Assembly: GCF_001625215.2 (NCBI RefSeq)
Contig: NC_030385.2
Location: forward strand, 28,141,135 to 28,205,134
Length of the DNA stretch: 64,000 bases
Reading direction: 5' to 3'
Source of the DNA: Daucus carota subsp. sativus
Taxonomy: Eukaryota; Streptophyta; Magnoliopsida; Apiales; Apiaceae
The position numbers and the translations under genes are program-made. Below the pieces are notes generated by a model. The model did no database searches. It was not told the origin of the DNA and saw nothing but the letters and a program-made list of their open reading frames with translations. Positions 15,089 through 25,765 of this stretch are shown in pieces. Position 1 is the first letter of the stretch. The number at the start of each line of letters is the position of its first letter.

Positions 15089-15551
15089 ATATTGAATCTT
15101 TTGACAATCTTTGTGTGTCGGTCATGAACTTTGTTCTTGTTTGAAGACGACAGCACTCGAGTTCTCTACTAGTAGTAGTTGTATATGGATTTTTCAACTT
15201 CTTTTTTTCTTGTCGTTTCGATTCATCCTATCTTTTATTATACCTGTTGAATATTGAGAGAGAGAGAGAGAGGCAGTACTTGTGGAATCAATCCAAGATT
15301 CAGGTATCGTTTCTGTTATACATACATATCTTGATCTTTTAATCGTAATTGTGTTGATTGGATTTTAAAAGCTGACAATTCGTTTGTAGTAAATTTTGTT
15401 TCACCCCCCTTTTATATTTAGAGGAATTGTGTATTTACAATGGAAAACTGATTTATGTGTTAGTATGTGGCTCGTTTATGTGATTTGTGGTTAATTTTAT
15501 GAATTTGGTTATATGTTTACTGAGAGTGGTTCTGATTTGTTTTATGTAGTG

Positions 15552-18323
15552 ATGATTACTTTTATGGATTCTAATGAAAATTTGAGGGAGATTGAGAAAT
15601 GCTTAGATTCTCAGTTCTGGCATGCTTGTGCCGGCAGTATGGTGCAAATGCCGCCGGTGAACTCTAAGGTCTATTATTTCCCTCAGGGTCATTTCGAGCA
15701 TTCTTGTCAGAATGTGGATTTTGTGAATAGGGTTCCGCCTTATGTTGTCTGTAGAGTATTGAGTAATAGGTTCATGGCGGATCCGGAGACTGATGAGGTT
15801 TATGCTAACATGAGGCTGGTTCCCGTAAGTGGAAATGAGGTTAATTGTGACGATGATGAAAGTTTGTCAGATGCGCAAGATAAACCTACTTCGTTTGCCA
15901 AGACATTGACGCAGTCAGATGCCAATAATGGTGGGGGATTTTCAGTTCCTCGCTATTGTGCAGAGACAATTTTCCCACGGCTGGACTACTCTGCAGATCC
16001 TCCAGTCCAAACTATTCTTGCTAAAGATGTTCATGGTGAAACGTGGAAATTCCGTCATATTTACAGGGGAACACCTAGACGTCATCTTTTAACGACAGGA
16101 TGGAGTACTTTCGTAAATCAGAAAAAGCTTGTTGCGGGAGATTCAATTGTGTTCTTGAGAGCTGAAAATGGGGACCTTTGTGTTGGAATACGGAGGGCGA
16201 AGAGGGGAATTGGCGGTAACCCTGAATCAACTTCTGGATGGAATCCGGCTGGCGGAAATTGTGCTGTGCCATATGGTGGGTTCTCAGCATTTCTTAGGGA
16301 TGATGAAAACAAATTAACAAGATACGGTGATGGAGGAAGTCCATGTGGTAGTGGAAGTGGAATGAACAAGGGAAAAGTGAGAGCTGAATCAGTAATTGAA
16401 GCAGCAACCCTTGCAGCTAATGGGCATCCCTTTGAAGTTGTTTACTACCCTCGAGCAAGCACACCAGAGTTCTGTGTGAAAGCCTCACAAGTGAAATCTG
16501 CAATGCAAATCCGGTGGTGCTCAGGAATGAGATTTAAAATGCCCTTTGAAACCGAAGATTCGTCACGTATAAGTTGGTTCATGGGGACTATATCCTCTGT
16601 TCAAGTTGCGGATCCTATGCGTTGGCCTGATTCACCTTGGAGGCTTCTGCAGGTATATTTCAGTGTGCAGTTTTTGGTTTTGACAAAGCTTCCAAGTAAT
16701 TGTTTTACATTCTCATGAATTATTTTTGGTTCTTATGTAGTTTAATTTATGCAATAGTTTGTATAAACAAATTATACAGAATCTTGTAAGCATTTCCCTG
16801 ATGTGCTCAAGATAATTCTATAAATATGTTCAGGTTAGGATTTTAATTCCACGGTAAAGCATCAGGTTCTGTCACAATTGCAGACCAATATATTGATAAC
16901 AGCTTGAACTGAAATGCTTCCTTTAGTTTGTATCTTGGTCTTCCATTAGTTTTACCTGGTGGTACATACAACATATATAGTTAAGCCTTCACCTGATGTT
17001 CCAGCATTTGTCTAGTATTGTGGCTATGTTGCTCCCAACTGTCAATATTCCAGTGCAATACACTGTTGTTTCTCTGTCACTATATCCTGATATGGTAGCT
17101 TGATTTTAGTGTACTTCATGATTTACATGTTTTGTCGTTCTATACCTATAAAATCAAGTAATGTGGTGCAGGTCACCTGGGATGAACCTGATTTGCTTCA
17201 CAATGTGAAAAGTGTCAGCCCATGGCTTGTGGAATTGGTGTCAAACATGCCTAGTATTCATATTTCCCCCTTGTCACCACCACGAAAGAAGCTAAGACTA
17301 CCCCAACACCCAGATTTCCCTCTCGACTGGCAACTTCCGGTTCCAACATTTTCTGGTAATCTTCTAGGGCACACCAGTCCTTTTGATCATTTTTCAGATA
17401 TCACTCCTGCTGGCATGCAGGGAGCCAGGCACACTCAATATGGTTTACCATTACCAGAATTCCACTTTAACAAATTGCAGTCGGGTCTATTTCCGCCTGG
17501 TTTCTCACCTTTTGGTCATGGTTGTATACCTACCAGGCCTTCCATCAATCCAAGCTTTAATAAGTCTAGAAGCAGTGAGAATATTTCCTGTTTGTTGAGC
17601 ATCGGGAATTCAGCACACGCTGCAAAAAAGGCTGATGACCAAAAACCACAGCAATTCTTACTTTTTGGTCAGCCAATACTTACAAAACAGCAGATCTCAG
17701 TAAGCAGCTCTGGTGTCACAGTCTCGCCAGTTTGTGCCGGCAACAGTTCTTCTGAAGGGGATGTAGATAAGGTATCAAATTTATCTGACGGTGATGGTTC
17801 CGCCTCTGGTTCAGGTTTTGCACTTCGTCAACATGCGATACGAGAGCGCCCATCCTGCGAAGGACACCTTCAATACAAAGGTAATCCACAGGAAGCTGAC
17901 GCTAACTTGGAAATCGGACACTGTAAGGTTTTCATGGAATCTGAGGATGTAGGTCGCACTCTTGATCTCTCTTTGCTTTCATCTTATGAAGAACTGTGCA
18001 GAAAATTGGCAACCATGTTTGGCATAGAAAGCTCTGATATGTTGAATCATGTGCTATACCGTGACATCAGAGGTGCTGTAAAGCACATCGGAGATGAATC
18101 ATTCAGGTGACTTTAGTTTTGCTGTCTTCCTAAATTTTTTCTGTGCCCTGATCAAATCAGGGGGCTTTAACTTCTTTTCAACTTTTAGATTTTCTTTTGA
18201 TGTTTACAAAAATTTTGGTTTTGCCCGCTTTTCTCACTTTTACTCTCTTGCAGTGAATTCACAAAAACAGCAAGAAGATTGACAATTCTAACAGATGCCA
18301 GCAGCAATAGCATAGGAATCTAG
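15552..18323 (+). CDS. ARF16-like: Auxin response factor, ARF10/16/17-type, miR160-regulated
   Basis: Nuclear transcription factor binding auxin-response elements; this clade acts as repressors in auxin signalling. Exons 15552-16652, 17172-18106 and 18254-18323 total 2106 nt, giving 701 aa. Start chosen at MITFMDSNE, the usual clade start; an in-frame ATG upstream (15513) probably lies in a 5'-leader intron (donor near 15303, acceptor near 15549). Domains: B3 DNA-binding domain at about residues 112-216 (TSFAKTLTQSDANNGGGFSV... WSTFVNQKKLVAGDSIVFLR); the ARF dimerisation region at about 280-395; a Pro/Ser-rich middle region; and a C-terminal PB1 domain (GRTLDLSLLSSYEELCRKLATMFGI). The miR160 site lies in the middle region. 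The RLFG-like repression motif appears as LLFGQPI. ARF16 versus ARF10 cannot be settled by eye. Confidence 0.95.
17411..17431 (+). promoter_or_regulatory. miR160 target site in the ARF coding region
   Basis: The 21-nt segment centred on CAGGGAGCCAGG is complementary to plant miR160 at every position, counting one G:U wobble at miRNA position 15. miR160 cleavage of ARF10/16/17 transcripts at this site is well established, so this gene is very probably under miR160 control. Confidence 0.95.
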
Positions 18324-21042: not shown

Positions 21043-21537
21043 AGAAATTTTTGATGGTACACTCATAGAATTGGCTTTTCTCAATGGTACCATCGCATTT
21101 TTGACTTCTACCAGTGGTACTCTCGTACTTTTAATTTATGTACTTTTGATCTACTCTCTATTGATTTCAGACTATAAAACAAATTGTATATTTGAAATCT
21201 TTGCCAAAACTTACATAAAATAGACCCTTAACTCATGTAAAACAGAGTCAAAATGAGTGAGATATTAATGACAAAGTTTGGTTATGAAGTTTGAATATAT
21301 CTCACTCATTTTGACTCTGTTTTACATGATTTAAGGGTCTATTTTATGTAACTTTTCGCAAAGATTTCAAATATACAATTTGTTTTACAATTTGAAATCA
21401 ATAGAGTAGATAAAAAGTACACGAGGGTACCATAGAGAGTAAATTAAAAGTACGAGCGTACCATCGGTAGAAGTCAAAAATGCGATGGTACCATTGAAAA
21501 AAGCCAATTCTACGAAGGTACCATCAAGAATTTACCT
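21043..21537. mobile_element. Foldback (long inverted repeat) MITE, Mutator-like
   Basis: Two arms of about 220-240 bp are reverse complements around a short spacer near 21265-21295. The left arm holds TTGATGGTAC, AGAATTGGCTTTT, CAATGGTACCATCGCATTTT, CAAATTGTATATTTGAAATC and AAAACAGAGTCAAAATGAGT; the right arm has each in reverse order and complement. AAATAAAAA lies just outside both ends (21034-21042 and 21538-21546), compatible with a 9-bp Mutator-type duplication, though such an A-rich word could be chance. Transcribed, it would form a long hairpin and be a source of small RNAs. Confidence 0.8.
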
Positions 21538-21683
21538 AAATAAAAACCAAGCTTGCTTGAATTGTATACGTGTCGAACTCGAAAAAGATTTCATATTCGT
21601 TTAGTTAAACGAGTCAGCTCGGCTCGACTCGATTTTTGAACCGAATTCGTGTAGAGATTTAACTTGATTAAGTGTAAATTAAA

Positions 21684-21980
21684 CGGGCCGACTCGATCAA
21701 CTTACTAAAATTCGACTTGTTTAGCTAAATGAGCCGACTTGACTCGACTCGACTCGACTCGTGAAATTAAATGAATTGAATTTGGACGGAGATTTTGACT
21801 CGATTTAGTTAAACGAGCATTGCTTGACACGATTAACTCAATTTAAATTACGATCAGCCCAAAACTAGACTTGCTAGGCCCAATTACAGCCCTGCTAAAC
21901 TCCATCCGGACAGAGCTGTACAATTGCAGCGATTTTAAAGCACGGAGCCTTTGAGTCCATTTTGCATAAATTTGCTAGTA
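21684..21980. repeat. 297-bp direct repeat, left copy
   Basis: Begins CGGGCCGACTCGATCAACTT and ends TTTGCTAGTA. The same 297 bases recur at 25469-25765 with two differences seen (T/C in the GACTCG run; A/G in CTGCTAAACTCC). It ends exactly where the Helitron-type terminus CTAG begins. Confidence 0.92.
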
Positions 21981-22737
21981 CTAGTATATCTGGCCCGTGC
22001 TTCGCACACGGGTAATGTTTGTTGTTTTCATATTTTTATAATTGATAATTTATCTGTACACATCCAATAATCAGGTTTTTATTGTGTATTGTTACGTGTC
22101 TCTTTTTCTAATTCCTAGTTGCACAATTGTATGGAATATACATACCATAGTCGGGTTATTAAAAGATGATCCAAATCTTTTTGGGAATTCATCAAAGAGA
22201 AAAGCTAACTTATAAAAAGAGTGAATTCAATGACTTCTTATTTCAAAAATTGTAAATCTGAGTAGTCTAACCAAATGAAACTTTTTGACAAACACCAATA
22301 AGTTAACTAATATCTATTGCGTAGAGATCAATAATAGGAACCGAAATTACTTGTGTTCTTATCCGGCATTACCAGCATTACTGTTATTTCTATTCGACAA
22401 AGCAATATTTTTATTTTACCAATATTTAAATATAGCTTATATTTAAAACCTAATGTTTATTTGACCATACCTGTTAAATTTATATGCTATAAACTCCTCG
22501 CAGAAGGAGAGGTAAAAAGTGGAGACATTGGGTGTTTGTTAACTTGACCTATATATGACCAAATTTAGACAAATGTATTAGCTTTACGATATTAAAACTG
22601 CAGCCAGCGCACATGTCTCATATTTCATTTAACTAACCAGATAAGCTTAATGATGCATAATGTGGAGAGAGGTGCGACAAATAAGTAGATGTTGATGGGG
22701 TGTGTAGCTGAGTAACATCTGAATATGGCAAAAGAAC

Positions 22738-22905
22738 GATGCAGTCCTGGAGAGCGTCACATCTGCCCTTATCAAGGCACTGGAGAACACGTTTCAACTT
22801 GTCCCTAGCCTAAACATCACCCGCATTCACTATAGCAGAGGTATGTTTAATTGTATAAAGATAGGCATTTACTTTAGCAGGTATTCCAGAATCTGGTAAA
22901 ATAAG
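22738..22905 (-). pseudogene. Decayed ubiquitin-activating enzyme E1 fragment, copy 1
   Basis: The minus-strand translation reads GIPAKVNAYLYTIKHTSAIVNAGDV, stop, ARDKLKRVLQCLDKGRCDALQDCI, which matches the plant E1 (UBA1-type) segment ahead of the second catalytic-cysteine half domain. An in-frame TAG replaces a conserved Gln in the GDAQARD motif, so it cannot code. It shares about 230 bp with copy 2, including downstream non-coding sequence to about 23030. Confidence 0.72.
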
Positions 22906-23876
22906 CAATAGCAAAGAGAGATCTTTTGTTCTCTTGTCACCAACTCTTTGACATCTAATTAAATGTAGAATATAGAATTCAAAATTTCCTTAATCTTAAG
23001 TACAACAGAATTAATAAGATCCAAATAACAAAAAAGAACCTTAGGGAATAATGTATATATTAGATTGGAAACTGAGATGCTTGTATAGGCCCATTGCACT
23101 TCTATTTGTTTATAGGAACATATTGCACTTGCCAAGCCTTTGAAATTAAAATCTTCGATGTTGGGTTCATTTTCATCAGGGGTACCCAAGTTAAACCTGA
23201 GATCAATAGGCATCAAAGTTTTCTAGCCACCTCTTTCCCTTTCCTATGTTTTGCTATGTGATATTCTGTATACATTTAAAAGATACTGATAGCCTTTCTT
23301 ATAATCAGATTATATATAGTATGATTTCAGATTTGATTATAAAAAATAATCAGAGCGACAGTAGCTTAGCCACGGACTGCAACAGAAAATACAGGACACT
23401 ATCCATTGACTTTGGTAACTATACTATTCTGGGAGGTTCCTAAACAACGTCTCTAAGGATTTGTGATCCTGTTTTTGTTACTACTGATTAGATTAAGAGG
23501 TACTTTGCATGGGAAGCAAAGATTAGATGTTTAAGTACATTAACCAAGACAACATATTGATTGATGCTGCACTACCAACCGTATGATCTGATCTCACTCG
23601 AGATCTCGCATATATTCCACTCATCAGACGGTTAATCATTAATATTATTTTAATCATCAATTTTGACTTTCCATGATGAATAACTATGATTTATTGTAAT
23701 TATCAAATTATATTAGTTGTTACTAAAATTTAGTAATAAATTGTCCTCTTATAGCCGGCAAGCTGGTTGGCATGGTGACTGATCAGACTTTTTGATTAAT
23801 AATATTATTATAATAATATTTATTCTACACACGATAAAGACATGCAAGTCACAGACAAAAGTTATACTCCCTCCGT

Positions 23877-24124
23877 CCCTTTTTACATGTCCACTTTGAC
23901 TTTTGACCAGTCAAATTGACTTTATTTTGACTGAACTTTACATGTATCAGATAATTGAGAAAAATAATAAAAATTATATCAATAGAAAGTACATTTAGTG
24001 TATTTTAATACGCAACTTTCAGATTTTAAAAATAATGAGTAGATAATTTGTAATATTTAGTCAAAAATTGGTCAATTTGACTCCTCGAAATGCATAATGG
24101 ACATGTAAAAGGGGACGGAGGGAG
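23877..24124. mobile_element. Stowaway MITE
   Basis: Starts CTCCCTCCGTCCCTTTTTAC and ends GTAAAAGGGGACGGAGGGAG, with TA on both sides (23875-23876 and 24125-24126). The arms continue ATGTCCACTTTGA... / ...ATAATGGACAT. 248 bp. The ends are well preserved, suggesting a younger insertion than the surrounding E1 fragments. Confidence 0.9.
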
Positions 24125-24126
24125 TA

Positions 24127-24947
24127 ACAATTCATCAAGCTAAGATTATCTAAAGTCCTCTAGAATAAAGTTTCCTTTGAAGCATACATATAAAGACTCA
24201 TTCTGTCTTCATATGAATCCAATTTAGATAATTTTAACTTCAAAATTACTAACTATCTTTCTTGAGGTTAAACAGGTACTATGTGAAGAATTTTGACAGG
24301 GTTCGCAAAATTCAGACTGAAGCAATGTATAAACTCTAACTTTATGCTAAGTGACATTAATAAAATCTTTAGTAAGCCTTTAAGTAATAATCAACATCTG
24401 GGTGCCTAGCAAAGGTAAAGATAACAACTCACATGCTACACACCAGATTTAATTTCGAAAAGAAGCTTTACATATTAATTAAGCATCTCAATTTTATGAC
24501 ATAAATGGTTACCTAGAGGGAATCTAATATATGCAAATCCAATTGTAGCTCAAACCACTAAACATAAAAGCTGCCTACAGTTAACAATCCACAGATGATC
24601 ACAAATTTTTTATAGGCTACATATAATTCACCACCAGAACAACCTACATAAGGCAACTAAGATTATAGGCTACCTAAGATTAGATAGTGCAACTATAGTT
24701 TAATTTGACCATTAGAATATAGATGAAATAACCTGTAACTGCAGTTGGACTTTCAGTTTTTGGCCTGAGCTCTGTTTGGAATACAGACCCATGTCCTCTC
24801 CTTTGCATATTTTATTCCAGACCCATGGAATTATGTACACACCTGGTAGATGAAGTGCAGAAATCAGCCACAATTTTCAGGATGATTCAGGCGGCGTTAC
24901 TTTTTTTAAATTTCTAAATCAGCCACAAAAGAAGTATGTCACATAAA
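24127..24947. other. AT-rich filler inside the 3.5-kb insertion
   Basis: No coding domain, RNA or terminus recognised between the Stowaway element and the second E1 fragment. Confidence 0.45.
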
Positions 24948-25274
24948 TTATGGTTGCAATTTCAAAACCATCACTCGATCAATAGCTTCTGCCAATGCCT
25001 TGGGCTGCACAGCCCAATCAAGAATAGTAATGCCGAACATCTCAGCTCGTAAAATGGAAGCTGCCATGACAAAATGCAAATTATTTGGATCACCAAGTAG
25101 TATACTGCTGTGGTTAGGAAACTTTTTAAACTTGTCCCTAGACTGAGCATCACCCGCATTCACTACAGCAGAGGAATATTTAATTGTATAAAGATAGGCA
25201 TTTACTTCAGCAGGTATTCCATAATTTGGTAACATAAGCAAAGAGAGATCTTTTGTTCTCTTGAAAGCGGTCAC
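24948..25274 (-). pseudogene. Ubiquitin-activating enzyme E1 fragment with internal deletion, copy 2
   Basis: The 108-codon minus-strand frame reads ...GIPAEVNAYLYTIKYSS, VVNAGDAQSRDK, then jumps to KFPNHSSILLGDPNNLHFV and MAASILRAEMFGITILDWA. Both halves match plant E1, but the segment that normally joins GDAQARD to the KRFP..LQF region (roughly 60 residues, still partly present in copy 1) is missing. Active-site Cys and adenylation domains are absent. It is therefore a truncated, rearranged gene piece, although its reading frame happens to be open. Confidence 0.75.
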
Positions 25275-25468
25275 TAACTCTTTGACATCTAATTAAATGT
25301 AGAATATAGAATTCAAAATTTCCTTAATCTTAAATACAACAGAATTAATAAGATCCAAATATGAGAGTTTTGAATAAACACCTAGAGCGAAGCAGGAGCT
25401 TGGGGTTGCTGCAGAGTGGTCTGGTCAATCAGCGTAACACAAATGCCATCATTTGTAAGAGCTTATTT

Positions 25469-25765
25469 CGGGCCGACTCGATCAACTTACTAAAATTCGA
25501 CTTGTTTAGCTAAATGAGCCGACTCGACTCGACTCGACTCGACTCGTGAAATTAAATGAATTGAATTTGGACGGAGATTTTGACTCGATTTAGTTAAACG
25601 AGCATTGCTTGACACGATTAACTCAATTTAAATTACGATCAGCCCAAAACTAGACTTGCTAGGCCCAATTACAGCCCTGCTAGACTCCATCCGGACAGAG
25701 CTGTACAATTGCAGCGATTTTAAAGCACGGAGCCTTTGAGTCCATTTTGCATAAATTTGCTAGTA
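25469..25765. repeat. 297-bp direct repeat, right copy
   Basis: Same length and order as the left copy (21684-21980), two mismatches seen. It continues on the right into TAATCTGCTCC, whereas the left copy continues into the insertion, so the two copies bracket the inserted DNA. Confidence 0.92.

What the first reader, a model, noticed from the sequence alone, without database searches (positions are those of the whole stretch)
21684..25765. 297-bp near-identical direct repeats bracket a Helitron-ended insertion
Seen directly: 297 bp at 21684-21980 recur at 25469-25765 with only two differences. The left copy stops exactly at a Helitron-type 3' terminus (hairpin plus CTAG), while the right copy continues into the flanking DNA. 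Helitrons are not known to make target duplications, and 297 bp is far beyond any transposase-made duplication. The simplest reading is that insertion was accompanied by a local duplication of the target, for example by strand invasion and repair synthesis. The two mismatches suggest the event is fairly recent.
Basis: partly seen in the sequence, partly recalled or inferred. Interest (0 to 1): 0.72.

Follow-up and report, generated by a model that had tools for sequence, protein, structure and literature searches.

The report
5'-truncated Helitrons with long target duplications
In what appears to be the carrot genome, a mobile element of the Helitron type, which is said not to duplicate its landing site, landed with a precise tail, a chopped-off head and a 297-base second copy of the landing site, and at least one other Helitron in the same genome clearly shows the same arrangement.

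Summary
The repeat is real: 21684-21980 and 25469-25765 differ at 2 of 297 bases; no other full copy was found. Between them lies a 3,488-bp Helitron piece on the minus strand with a canonical hairpin/CTAG 3' end at an A^T target. Relatives in the same genome show that its 5' end is missing: they continue about 0.97-1.0 kb further. At the break, host and Helitron overlap by 2 bases (CG). Five relatives with nearly complete 5' ends carry no such repeat. The left copy is the original: a dispersed repeat family runs through its outer edge but not through that of the right copy.

It recurs. Of 131 similar 3' ends, 30 were surveyed; 6 have a near-identical same-strand copy of the 3' flank upstream. 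In L065 (122 bp), and less directly L058 (693 bp), the copy runs straight into internal Helitron sequence, as in the window. In the other four (L051, L064, L067, L074) this was not shown, and insertion into an older local repeat is not excluded.

Best reading: the Helitron 3' end joined the T of the A^T target; the A-3'OH was extended along the target, then connected to internal Helitron sequence. New variant of a known kind.

The parts
21684..21980 (.). Left copy of the 297 bp: the original target segment, on the T side of the Helitron's A^T target (read on the minus strand it begins TACTAGC right after CTAG)
   Evidence: six members of a dispersed repeat align from 21597-21617 straight through the outer edge of this copy, four of them to about 21893
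21981..25468 (-). 5'-truncated non-autonomous Helitron, 3,488 bp, lacking about 0.97-1.0 kb of its 5' end
   Evidence: relatives on C4, C5 (two), C7, C9, 85-99.8% identical by segment; four of them have homologous sequence 5' of the break
21981..22012 (-). Helitron 3' terminus: hairpin CCCGTGTGCGAAGCACGGG, then CCAGATATACTAG, next base T
   Evidence: 131 matches to a pattern of such ends in the genome, none for the pattern read backwards
22792..23027 (-). First copy of a captured gene fragment (ubiquitin-activating enzyme E1-like, by reading; no Pfam hit for this copy)
   Evidence: the repeat is shared by relatives, so older than this insertion
23865..24126 (.). MITE with terminal inverted repeats, absent from the C7, C5a and C9 relatives, so probably inserted after this Helitron arrived
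24950..25361 (-). Second, internally deleted E1-like fragment (ends approximate)
   Evidence: Pfam PF10585 UBA_E1_SCCH E=6e-4, 20.2 bits against a gathering score of 21; weak E1 matches in the PDB, E 0.03 and 0.17
25469..25470 (.). 2-bp overlap (CG) at the junction of the new target copy and internal Helitron sequence
   Evidence: relatives read ...CTCATA-CG-AAATAAGC (C4: AAATTAGC); host reads ...GGCC-CG-TTTAATTT
25469..25765 (.). Right copy of the 297 bp: the newly made copy; begins abruptly at 25469 and restores the A^T target at 25765/25766

Best explanation
A Helitron insertion at an A^T target was completed precisely at its 3' end but not at its 5' end. Written on the Helitron strand: the host was nicked between A and T; the Helitron's CTAG-3' end was joined to the T (canonical; inferred from the product). 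The free A-3'OH was not joined to the Helitron's 5' TC; it was extended along the target for 297 nt, making a second copy of the target (inferred). The new end was then connected, at a 2-nt overlap, to sequence about 1 kb inside the Helitron, by template switch or end joining (inferred). Result: host-A + new 297 bp + truncated Helitron-CTAG + original 297 bp. Shown: the truncation, the exact CTAG|T edge, the restored A^T, which copy is original, and one clear (L065) and one likely (L058) further case. Inferred: order of steps, enzymes, and whether the 297-nt synthesis used the nicked target itself (strand displacement, or fill-in of a staggered break) or the sister chromatid.
For: (1) 2 mismatches in 297 bp; only two full copies found. 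(2) Relatives C5a, C9, C5b, C4 share homologous sequence 5' of the window break; in C4 it ends at A|TCTATATCTATATATTC, in C5a, C5b and C7 in the same sequence within a TATATC-rich stretch where the exact first base is ambiguous, and C9 is cut there by another Helitron. (3) None of these five relatives has its 3' flank (1.5 kb tested) repeated upstream from its first base. (4) Six of six members of a dispersed repeat align through the outer edge of the left copy; at the right copy three start at 25469 and three at 25477-25490. (5) Recurrence: of 30 surveyed 3' ends, 6 (L051, L058, L064, L065, L067, L074) have a same-strand upstream copy that covers the 3' flank from base 1: 122 bp 100% (L065), 195 bp 100% (L067), 246 bp 98% (L064), 693 bp 99.9% (L058), at least 500 bp 100% (L074), at least 100 bp 100% (L051). 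(6) In L065 the copy runs straight into sequence that relatives L050 and L064 hold inside their Helitrons; in L058 into a ~223-bp tandem array of relatives (indirect). (7) The base before the upstream copy is A in the window and in 6 of 6 (read in five; for L051 inferred from an aligned base). (8) All six copies lie upstream of the 3' end. (9) At four of the five junctions read (WIN, L058, L064, L067) no TC follows the copy; in L065 one ambiguous base would allow it.
Against: No empty-site allele could be inspected. For L051, L064, L067 and L074 it was not shown that the copy abuts Helitron sequence; a Helitron that landed in one unit of an older local direct repeat would also show an upstream copy from base 1 preceded by A. 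The two searches meant to test this (5' flanks of five copies; sequence after the L064 and L067 copies) were each sent seven times and never answered (and 125, 128, 131, 134, 137, 140, 143). In the letters held, the 5' flanks of L058, L064, L065 and L067 do not recur next to the Helitron side apart from a 15-base match for L064, but these letters are incomplete. L067's flank occurs four times in 8 kb, which fits an older repeat as well. The control, 19 segments 1.1 kb downstream, gave 1 local same-strand copy against 5 (plus the same tandem case) in those 19 loci: suggestive only; its list of 40 was also filled largely by one repeat. The 30 ends are the first of 131 (all on C1 and C2), and four flanks (L052, L053, L056, L061) lie in high-copy repeats. 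The two window copies differ slightly more (2/297) than the window Helitron and its C7 sister (3 substitutions in 2,781 aligned bases); the numbers are too small to weigh much.
Confidence: 0.73

Rival explanations
1. Patch-mediated double-strand-break repair without transposition: staggered nicks 297 bp apart were filled in and a piece of Helitron DNA was captured as filler between the filled ends.
For: Tandem and partially tandem duplications with insertions are common in rice and are attributed to nearby nicks and end joining (Vaughn & Bennetzen 2014, seen only as cited in PMC7407515). Paired nicks give tandem duplications by fill-in in mammalian cells, with microhomology when theta-mediated (PMC8355091, passages). 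Long direct repeats of target origin flank some transposed Arabidopsis genes (PMC2869330, section 8).
Against: In the window, L065 and L058 one edge of the insert is exactly the Helitron CTAG with T after it, and the duplication starts exactly there and restores A^T; random filler would not respect that. The loci other than the window were however selected for having a CTAGT end.
Confidence: 0.12
2. Sister-chromatid version of the best explanation: the 3' end joined, the other end stayed open, and the truncated Helitron end invaded the empty sister chromatid 297 bp inside the target and copied outward (break-induced replication or SDSA).
For: Gives the same product and explains the short overlap and the variable length (297, 122 and 693 bp in WIN, L065, L058).
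Against: Needs a break plus invasion at very short homology; extension of the ready-made A-3'OH is simpler. The final sequence cannot separate the two.
Confidence: 0.35
3. Older local repeat: the Helitron landed, in the normal way, in one unit of a direct repeat that was already there.
For: Would give an upstream copy from flank base 1 preceded by A. Not excluded for L051, L064, L067, L074; L067's flank has four copies in 8 kb.
Against: Excluded for the window and L065, where the copy runs straight into internal Helitron sequence and not into a second copy of the 5' flank; unlikely for L058. It does not explain the 5' truncation, and would put copies downstream as often as upstream (0 of 6 seen).
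Confidence: 0.03
4. Canonical insertion followed by an unrelated tandem duplication or unequal exchange that also deleted the 5' end.
For: Tandem duplications occur at such loci: L069/L070 ends are 5,282 bp apart and identical over at least 2,158 bp including 656 bp of Helitron.
Against: Would not by itself start at the first base after CTAG and restore A^T; L069/L070 shows a plain duplication, which includes Helitron sequence.
Confidence: 0.06
5. The 297 bp belongs to the element (long terminal repeat or captured flank).
For: Both copies abut the element.
Against: No full copy elsewhere was found; five relatives lack it.
Confidence: 0.01

Closest known systems
Canonical Helitron insertion (plant Helitrons; Helraiser in human cells, PMC4778049, PMC5876387)
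   Same: 3' hairpin, CTAG-3', insertion between A and T; relatives have the 5' end
   Different: Those insertions have TC-to-A and CTAG-to-T joints at one A^T and no target duplication (passages read); here the 5' end is missing and 297 bp of target is duplicated
Patch-mediated tandem duplications with insertions (rice, Vaughn & Bennetzen 2014)
   Same: Local sequence duplicated around an insert; explained by nicks on both strands and end joining
   Different: One boundary here is a precise transposon terminus at its own target dinucleotide. Paper known only through its citation in PMC7407515
Transposed Arabidopsis genes flanked by direct repeats (Woodhouse et al. 2010, PMC2869330)
   Same: Direct repeats of 30-550 bp, many present at the orthologous target site (section 8 read)
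   Different: Explained there by circles recombining at homologous repeats; the word Helitron does not occur in the main text; repeats are not tied to a transposon end
5'-truncated LINE insertions by target-primed reverse transcription (recalled)
   Same: Precise 3' end, 5' truncation, target copying, short overlap at the 5' junction
   Different: DNA element, no RNA template; the likeness is in outcome, not homology
Arrays of truncated Helitrons (Xiong et al., as described in PMC12628747, passages)
   Same: Truncated Helitrons in plants
   Different: Those arrays often have multiple 5' ends and a single 3' end; here a single copy lacks its 5' end and the target is duplicated

Membership tests
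Helitron (plant, non-autonomous) | 3' CTRR preceded by a short GC-rich hairpin | tested here: met
   CTAG at 21981-21984 with hairpin on the minus strand; 131 matches in the genome against 0 for the pattern read backwards
Helitron (plant, non-autonomous) | Insertion between A and T | tested here: met
   ...GATTA / TACTAG... and CTAG|T
Helitron (plant, non-autonomous) | 5' TC terminus | tested here: not met
   Absent from the window copy; relative C4 has A|TCTATATC. Filed as a truncated member of a family that has it
Helitron (plant, non-autonomous) | No target-site duplication | tested here: not met
   297-bp duplication of the target at this locus; no such duplication in 5 of 5 relatives examined
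Helitron (plant, non-autonomous) | RepHel transposase encoded by an autonomous partner | not tested
   no search for the transposase was made
Patch-mediated DSB repair | Insert boundaries unrelated to transposon termini | tested here: not met
   CTAG boundary exact in the window; the other loci were chosen for having that boundary
Patch-mediated DSB repair | Local sequence duplicated on both sides of the insert | tested here: met
   window and L065
LTR retrotransposon (direct repeats as LTRs) | Repeats are part of the element and recur with other copies | tested here: not met
   only two full copies of the 297 bp found; relatives lack them

The most novel reading that the evidence does not exclude
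Helitrons have a regular second mode of integration: 3'-end-first and target-primed, in which the nicked target's A-3'OH copies its own neighbourhood for 100-700 nt or more before switching into the interior of the element. 5'-truncated Helitrons with long duplications of the 3' flank would then be a standard product (up to one in five of the 3' ends surveyed here, if the four open loci prove to be of the same kind), comparable in outcome to 5'-truncated LINEs, and this would explain where 5'-truncated Helitrons come from.
Probability: 0.35. Interest if true: 0.82.

Novelty: new variant of a known kind. Interest (0 to 1): 0.65.

Why it matters
The Helitron papers whose passages I read state that Helitrons make no target duplications, and two of them take this as a sign of single-strand transfer (PMC5876387; PMC5148889). 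A product with a precise 3' joint, a missing 5' end and a long duplication of the 3' flank separates the two joining reactions: the 3' joint can be completed without the 5' joint, and the A-3'OH left at the target can be extended. It gives a route to 5'-truncated Helitrons, a source of local 0.1-0.7 kb target duplications, and a signature (start at CTAG|T, on the T side, running straight into internal Helitron sequence) that any assembled genome can be scanned for.

Tried and rejected
Element-end hypothesis (297 bp as LTR or element terminus): rejected by the genome search and the relatives. Assembly artefact: unlikely, the copies carry two differences and different flanks. The internal 22792-23027 / 25125-25361 repeat as a second target duplication: rejected, it is an E1-like gene fragment present twice and shared by relatives. 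L069/L070: a plain 5,282-bp tandem duplication that includes Helitron sequence; not counted. Not counted either: L062 (same-strand copies 38 kb upstream and 21-37 kb downstream), L050 (inverted copy 32 kb away), L066 and L072 (copies on other contigs), L073 (92% copy 10.6 kb downstream, not from base 1). L052, L053, L056, L061 flanks lie in high-copy repeats: undecided. The L051 duplication could not be measured because a MITE in its flank filled the hit list. The searches for the full length of the L074 copy, for a shorter L051 flank, for the L064 and L067 sequences after the copy, and for the 5' flanks of five upstream copies were sent repeatedly and never answered. So L064, L067, L051 and L074 stay open: older local repeat or same kind. 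Empty site: no second assembly or relative is held. Literature: full-text searches showed no paper on long target duplication by Helitrons by title or start of abstract; most listed papers were not opened, and the library lacks most subscription journals.
Full report
The source. The window lies in an assembly of 441,086,747 bases in 11 contigs. Size and chromosome number fit carrot DH1 v3, 440.7 Mb in nine chromosomes (PMC10581907, passages). No tool named the species, so carrot is an inference. The window is C5:28141135-28205134, plus strand.

The observation. The 297-bp copies at 21684-21980 and 25469-25765 differ at two positions, without indels. The left copy abuts CTAG at 21981; read on the minus strand this is the end of CCCGTGTGCGAAGCACGGGCCAGATATACTAG followed by T, a Helitron 3' terminus. 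The pattern GTGCGAAGCACGGGC-(4-14)-CTAGT occurs 131 times in the genome (100 listed), and 0 times when read backwards as a control. The 297 bp has two full copies among the places found; the other 50 listed matches are 71-81% identical and partial, members of a dispersed repeat (40 of 394 candidates scored).

Which copy is original. Six members of that dispersed repeat (L003-L008) were compared with both copies and their flanks. Their best alignments start at 21597-21617, left of the left copy, and run on into it. At the right copy three start exactly at 25469 and three at 25477-25490. So the left copy is continuous with its surroundings, and the right copy is a piece that begins abruptly.

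The element. The 3,488 bp between the copies match relatives on C7 (99.8%, without the MITE and with a 450-bp internal deletion), C5:4.77 Mb (C5a), C9:8.38 Mb, C5:29.9 Mb (C5b) and C4:47.12 Mb, 85-99.8% identical by segment. Four of these (C5a, C9, C5b, C4) have homologous sequence 5' of the point where the window copy stops (...GATACTCATA|CGAAATAAGC; C4 one base different). In C4 the element ends at A|TCTATATCTATATATTC, a Helitron-type 5' end; in C5a, C5b and C7 the same end lies in a TATATC-rich stretch, so its first base is ambiguous; in C9 the 3' end of another Helitron abuts it. The window copy lacks about 0.97-1.0 kb. At the break host and Helitron share CG. None of the five relatives has its 3' flank repeated upstream from the first base (1.5 kb of flank; C9 and C7 show only 52-66 bp matches of 77-80% elsewhere). 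The insert carries two fragments that read like a ubiquitin-activating enzyme E1 gene (PF10585, E=6e-4, below the gathering score, for one of them), shared by relatives, and a MITE at 23865-24126 that is absent from C7, C5a and C9.

Recurrence. I took the first 30 of the 131 3' ends (L046-L075, on C1 and C2). Within 1.5 kb upstream, 1 of 30 has a copy of its 3' flank from base 1: L065, 122 bp, 100%. The other 29 flanks (first 100 bases each) were searched genome-wide in three composite queries of 10, 9 and 10 flanks: L058 and L064, L067 and L074 and L051 have same-strand copies 2.3-4.5 kb upstream. Reading four of these gave 693 bp with one mismatch (L058), 246 bp at 98% (L064), 195 bp at 100% (L067) and at least 500 bp at 100% (L074, running past the fetched stretch). 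The base before the copy is A in the window, L065, L058, L064, L067 and L074, and by an aligned base in L051.

How firm each case is. In the window the copy runs straight into sequence that four relatives hold 1 kb inside the Helitron. In L065 it runs into sequence that L050 and L064 hold inside their Helitrons, with mutual homology continuing upstream; one ambiguous base there would allow a TC, but it is not a terminus in those relatives. In L058 it runs into sequence that in relatives forms a ~223-bp tandem array, at one of them 5.3-7.4 kb upstream of the 3' end C5:43283814; this is indirect. For L064, L067, L074 and L051 I could not show that what follows the copy is Helitron. A Helitron that landed normally in one unit of an older direct repeat would also give an upstream copy from base 1 preceded by A. 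In the letters held, the 5' flanks of the L058, L064, L065 and L067 copies do not recur beside the Helitron (apart from a 15-base match for L064), but the letters are incomplete, and the genome-wide searches for this did not complete. L067's flank has four copies in 8 kb, which suits either reading.

Controls and limits. Nineteen 100-base segments taken 1.1 kb downstream of 19 of the same ends gave a local same-strand copy at one locus, L069, the known tandem duplication; in the same 19 loci the flank itself gave five plus that one. The lists hold at most 40 scored places and high-copy repeats crowd them, in the control too, so the counts are lower bounds and not a genome-wide rate. L069/L070 were dropped as a plain tandem duplication; L062, L050, L066, L072 and L073 were not counted; L052, L053, L056 and L061 are undecided. 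All six copies lie upstream of the 3' end, none downstream.

Mechanism. A Helitron joins its 3' CTAG to the T and its 5' TC to the A of an A^T target (Helraiser, PMC4778049, passages). Here the first joint is perfect and the second did not happen at its proper place. Instead the A is followed by the target's own next bases, once more, for 297 bases (122 in L065, 693 in L058), and then by internal Helitron sequence. The simplest reading is that the A-3'OH was extended along the target and then jumped or was joined to the Helitron, helped by little or no homology (2 bases in the window). On the Helitron strand this is extension of a recessed 3' end; it needs strand displacement at a single nick, or a second nick on the other strand as proposed for patch-mediated duplications (cited in PMC7407515; compare PMC8355091), or an empty sister chromatid as template. 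The sequence cannot tell these apart. What is shown is the product's anatomy; order, enzymes and template are inferred.

What is known. Passages read in PMC5876387, PMC5148889, PMC4683698 and PMC10095026 state that Helitrons make no target duplications; the first two tie this to single-strand transfer. 5'-truncated Helitrons are mentioned in bats (PMC4778049). Long direct repeats of target origin flank some transposed Arabidopsis genes (PMC2869330, section 8), explained by recombining circles, without the word Helitron in the main text. Full-text searches showed no paper on long target duplications at Helitrons by title or start of abstract; most were not opened and many journals are not held.

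Verdict. One further locus is of the same kind, one probably, four possibly.

Noticed in passing
22792-23027 and 25125-25361 (minus strand), 24950-25361: The Helitron carries two partly overlapping fragments that read like a ubiquitin-activating enzyme E1 gene; the repeat is shared by relatives and so is older than this insertion.
   Followed up: partly
23865-24126: MITE listed at 28 other places in the genome (94-100% identical, capped list), absent from the C7 sister Helitron: probably a young family.
   Followed up: partly
L067 / C2:20427638-20435477: The 3' flank of this Helitron end occurs four times in 8 kb on the same strand (the other three 100%, 97% and 99%): repeated events at one place, or an older local repeat.
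   Followed up: no
L069/L070, C2:33511497 and 33516779: 5,282-bp tandem duplication, identical over at least 2,158 bp, including 656 bp of a Helitron 3' part; recent, or an assembly duplicate.
   Followed up: partly
L040 (C9:8.38 Mb): A different Helitron's 3' end (GCACGGGCAAGATTGCTAG) abuts the first bases of this family's copy: an insertion at or into an element end.
   Followed up: partly
21045-21533: Long inverted repeat (arms 91-95% complementary) just left of the 297-bp left copy, probably a foldback or MITE-type element.
   Followed up: no
C5:43289092-43291188 and C3:14047687-14049116: Relatives of the L058 Helitron piece form arrays of ~223-bp tandem repeats (about 10 and 7 units listed).
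   Followed up: no
15513-18110: ORFs that look like an auxin response factor gene (from reading the translation; recalled, no family search made), about 3.6 kb from the left copy.
   Followed up: no
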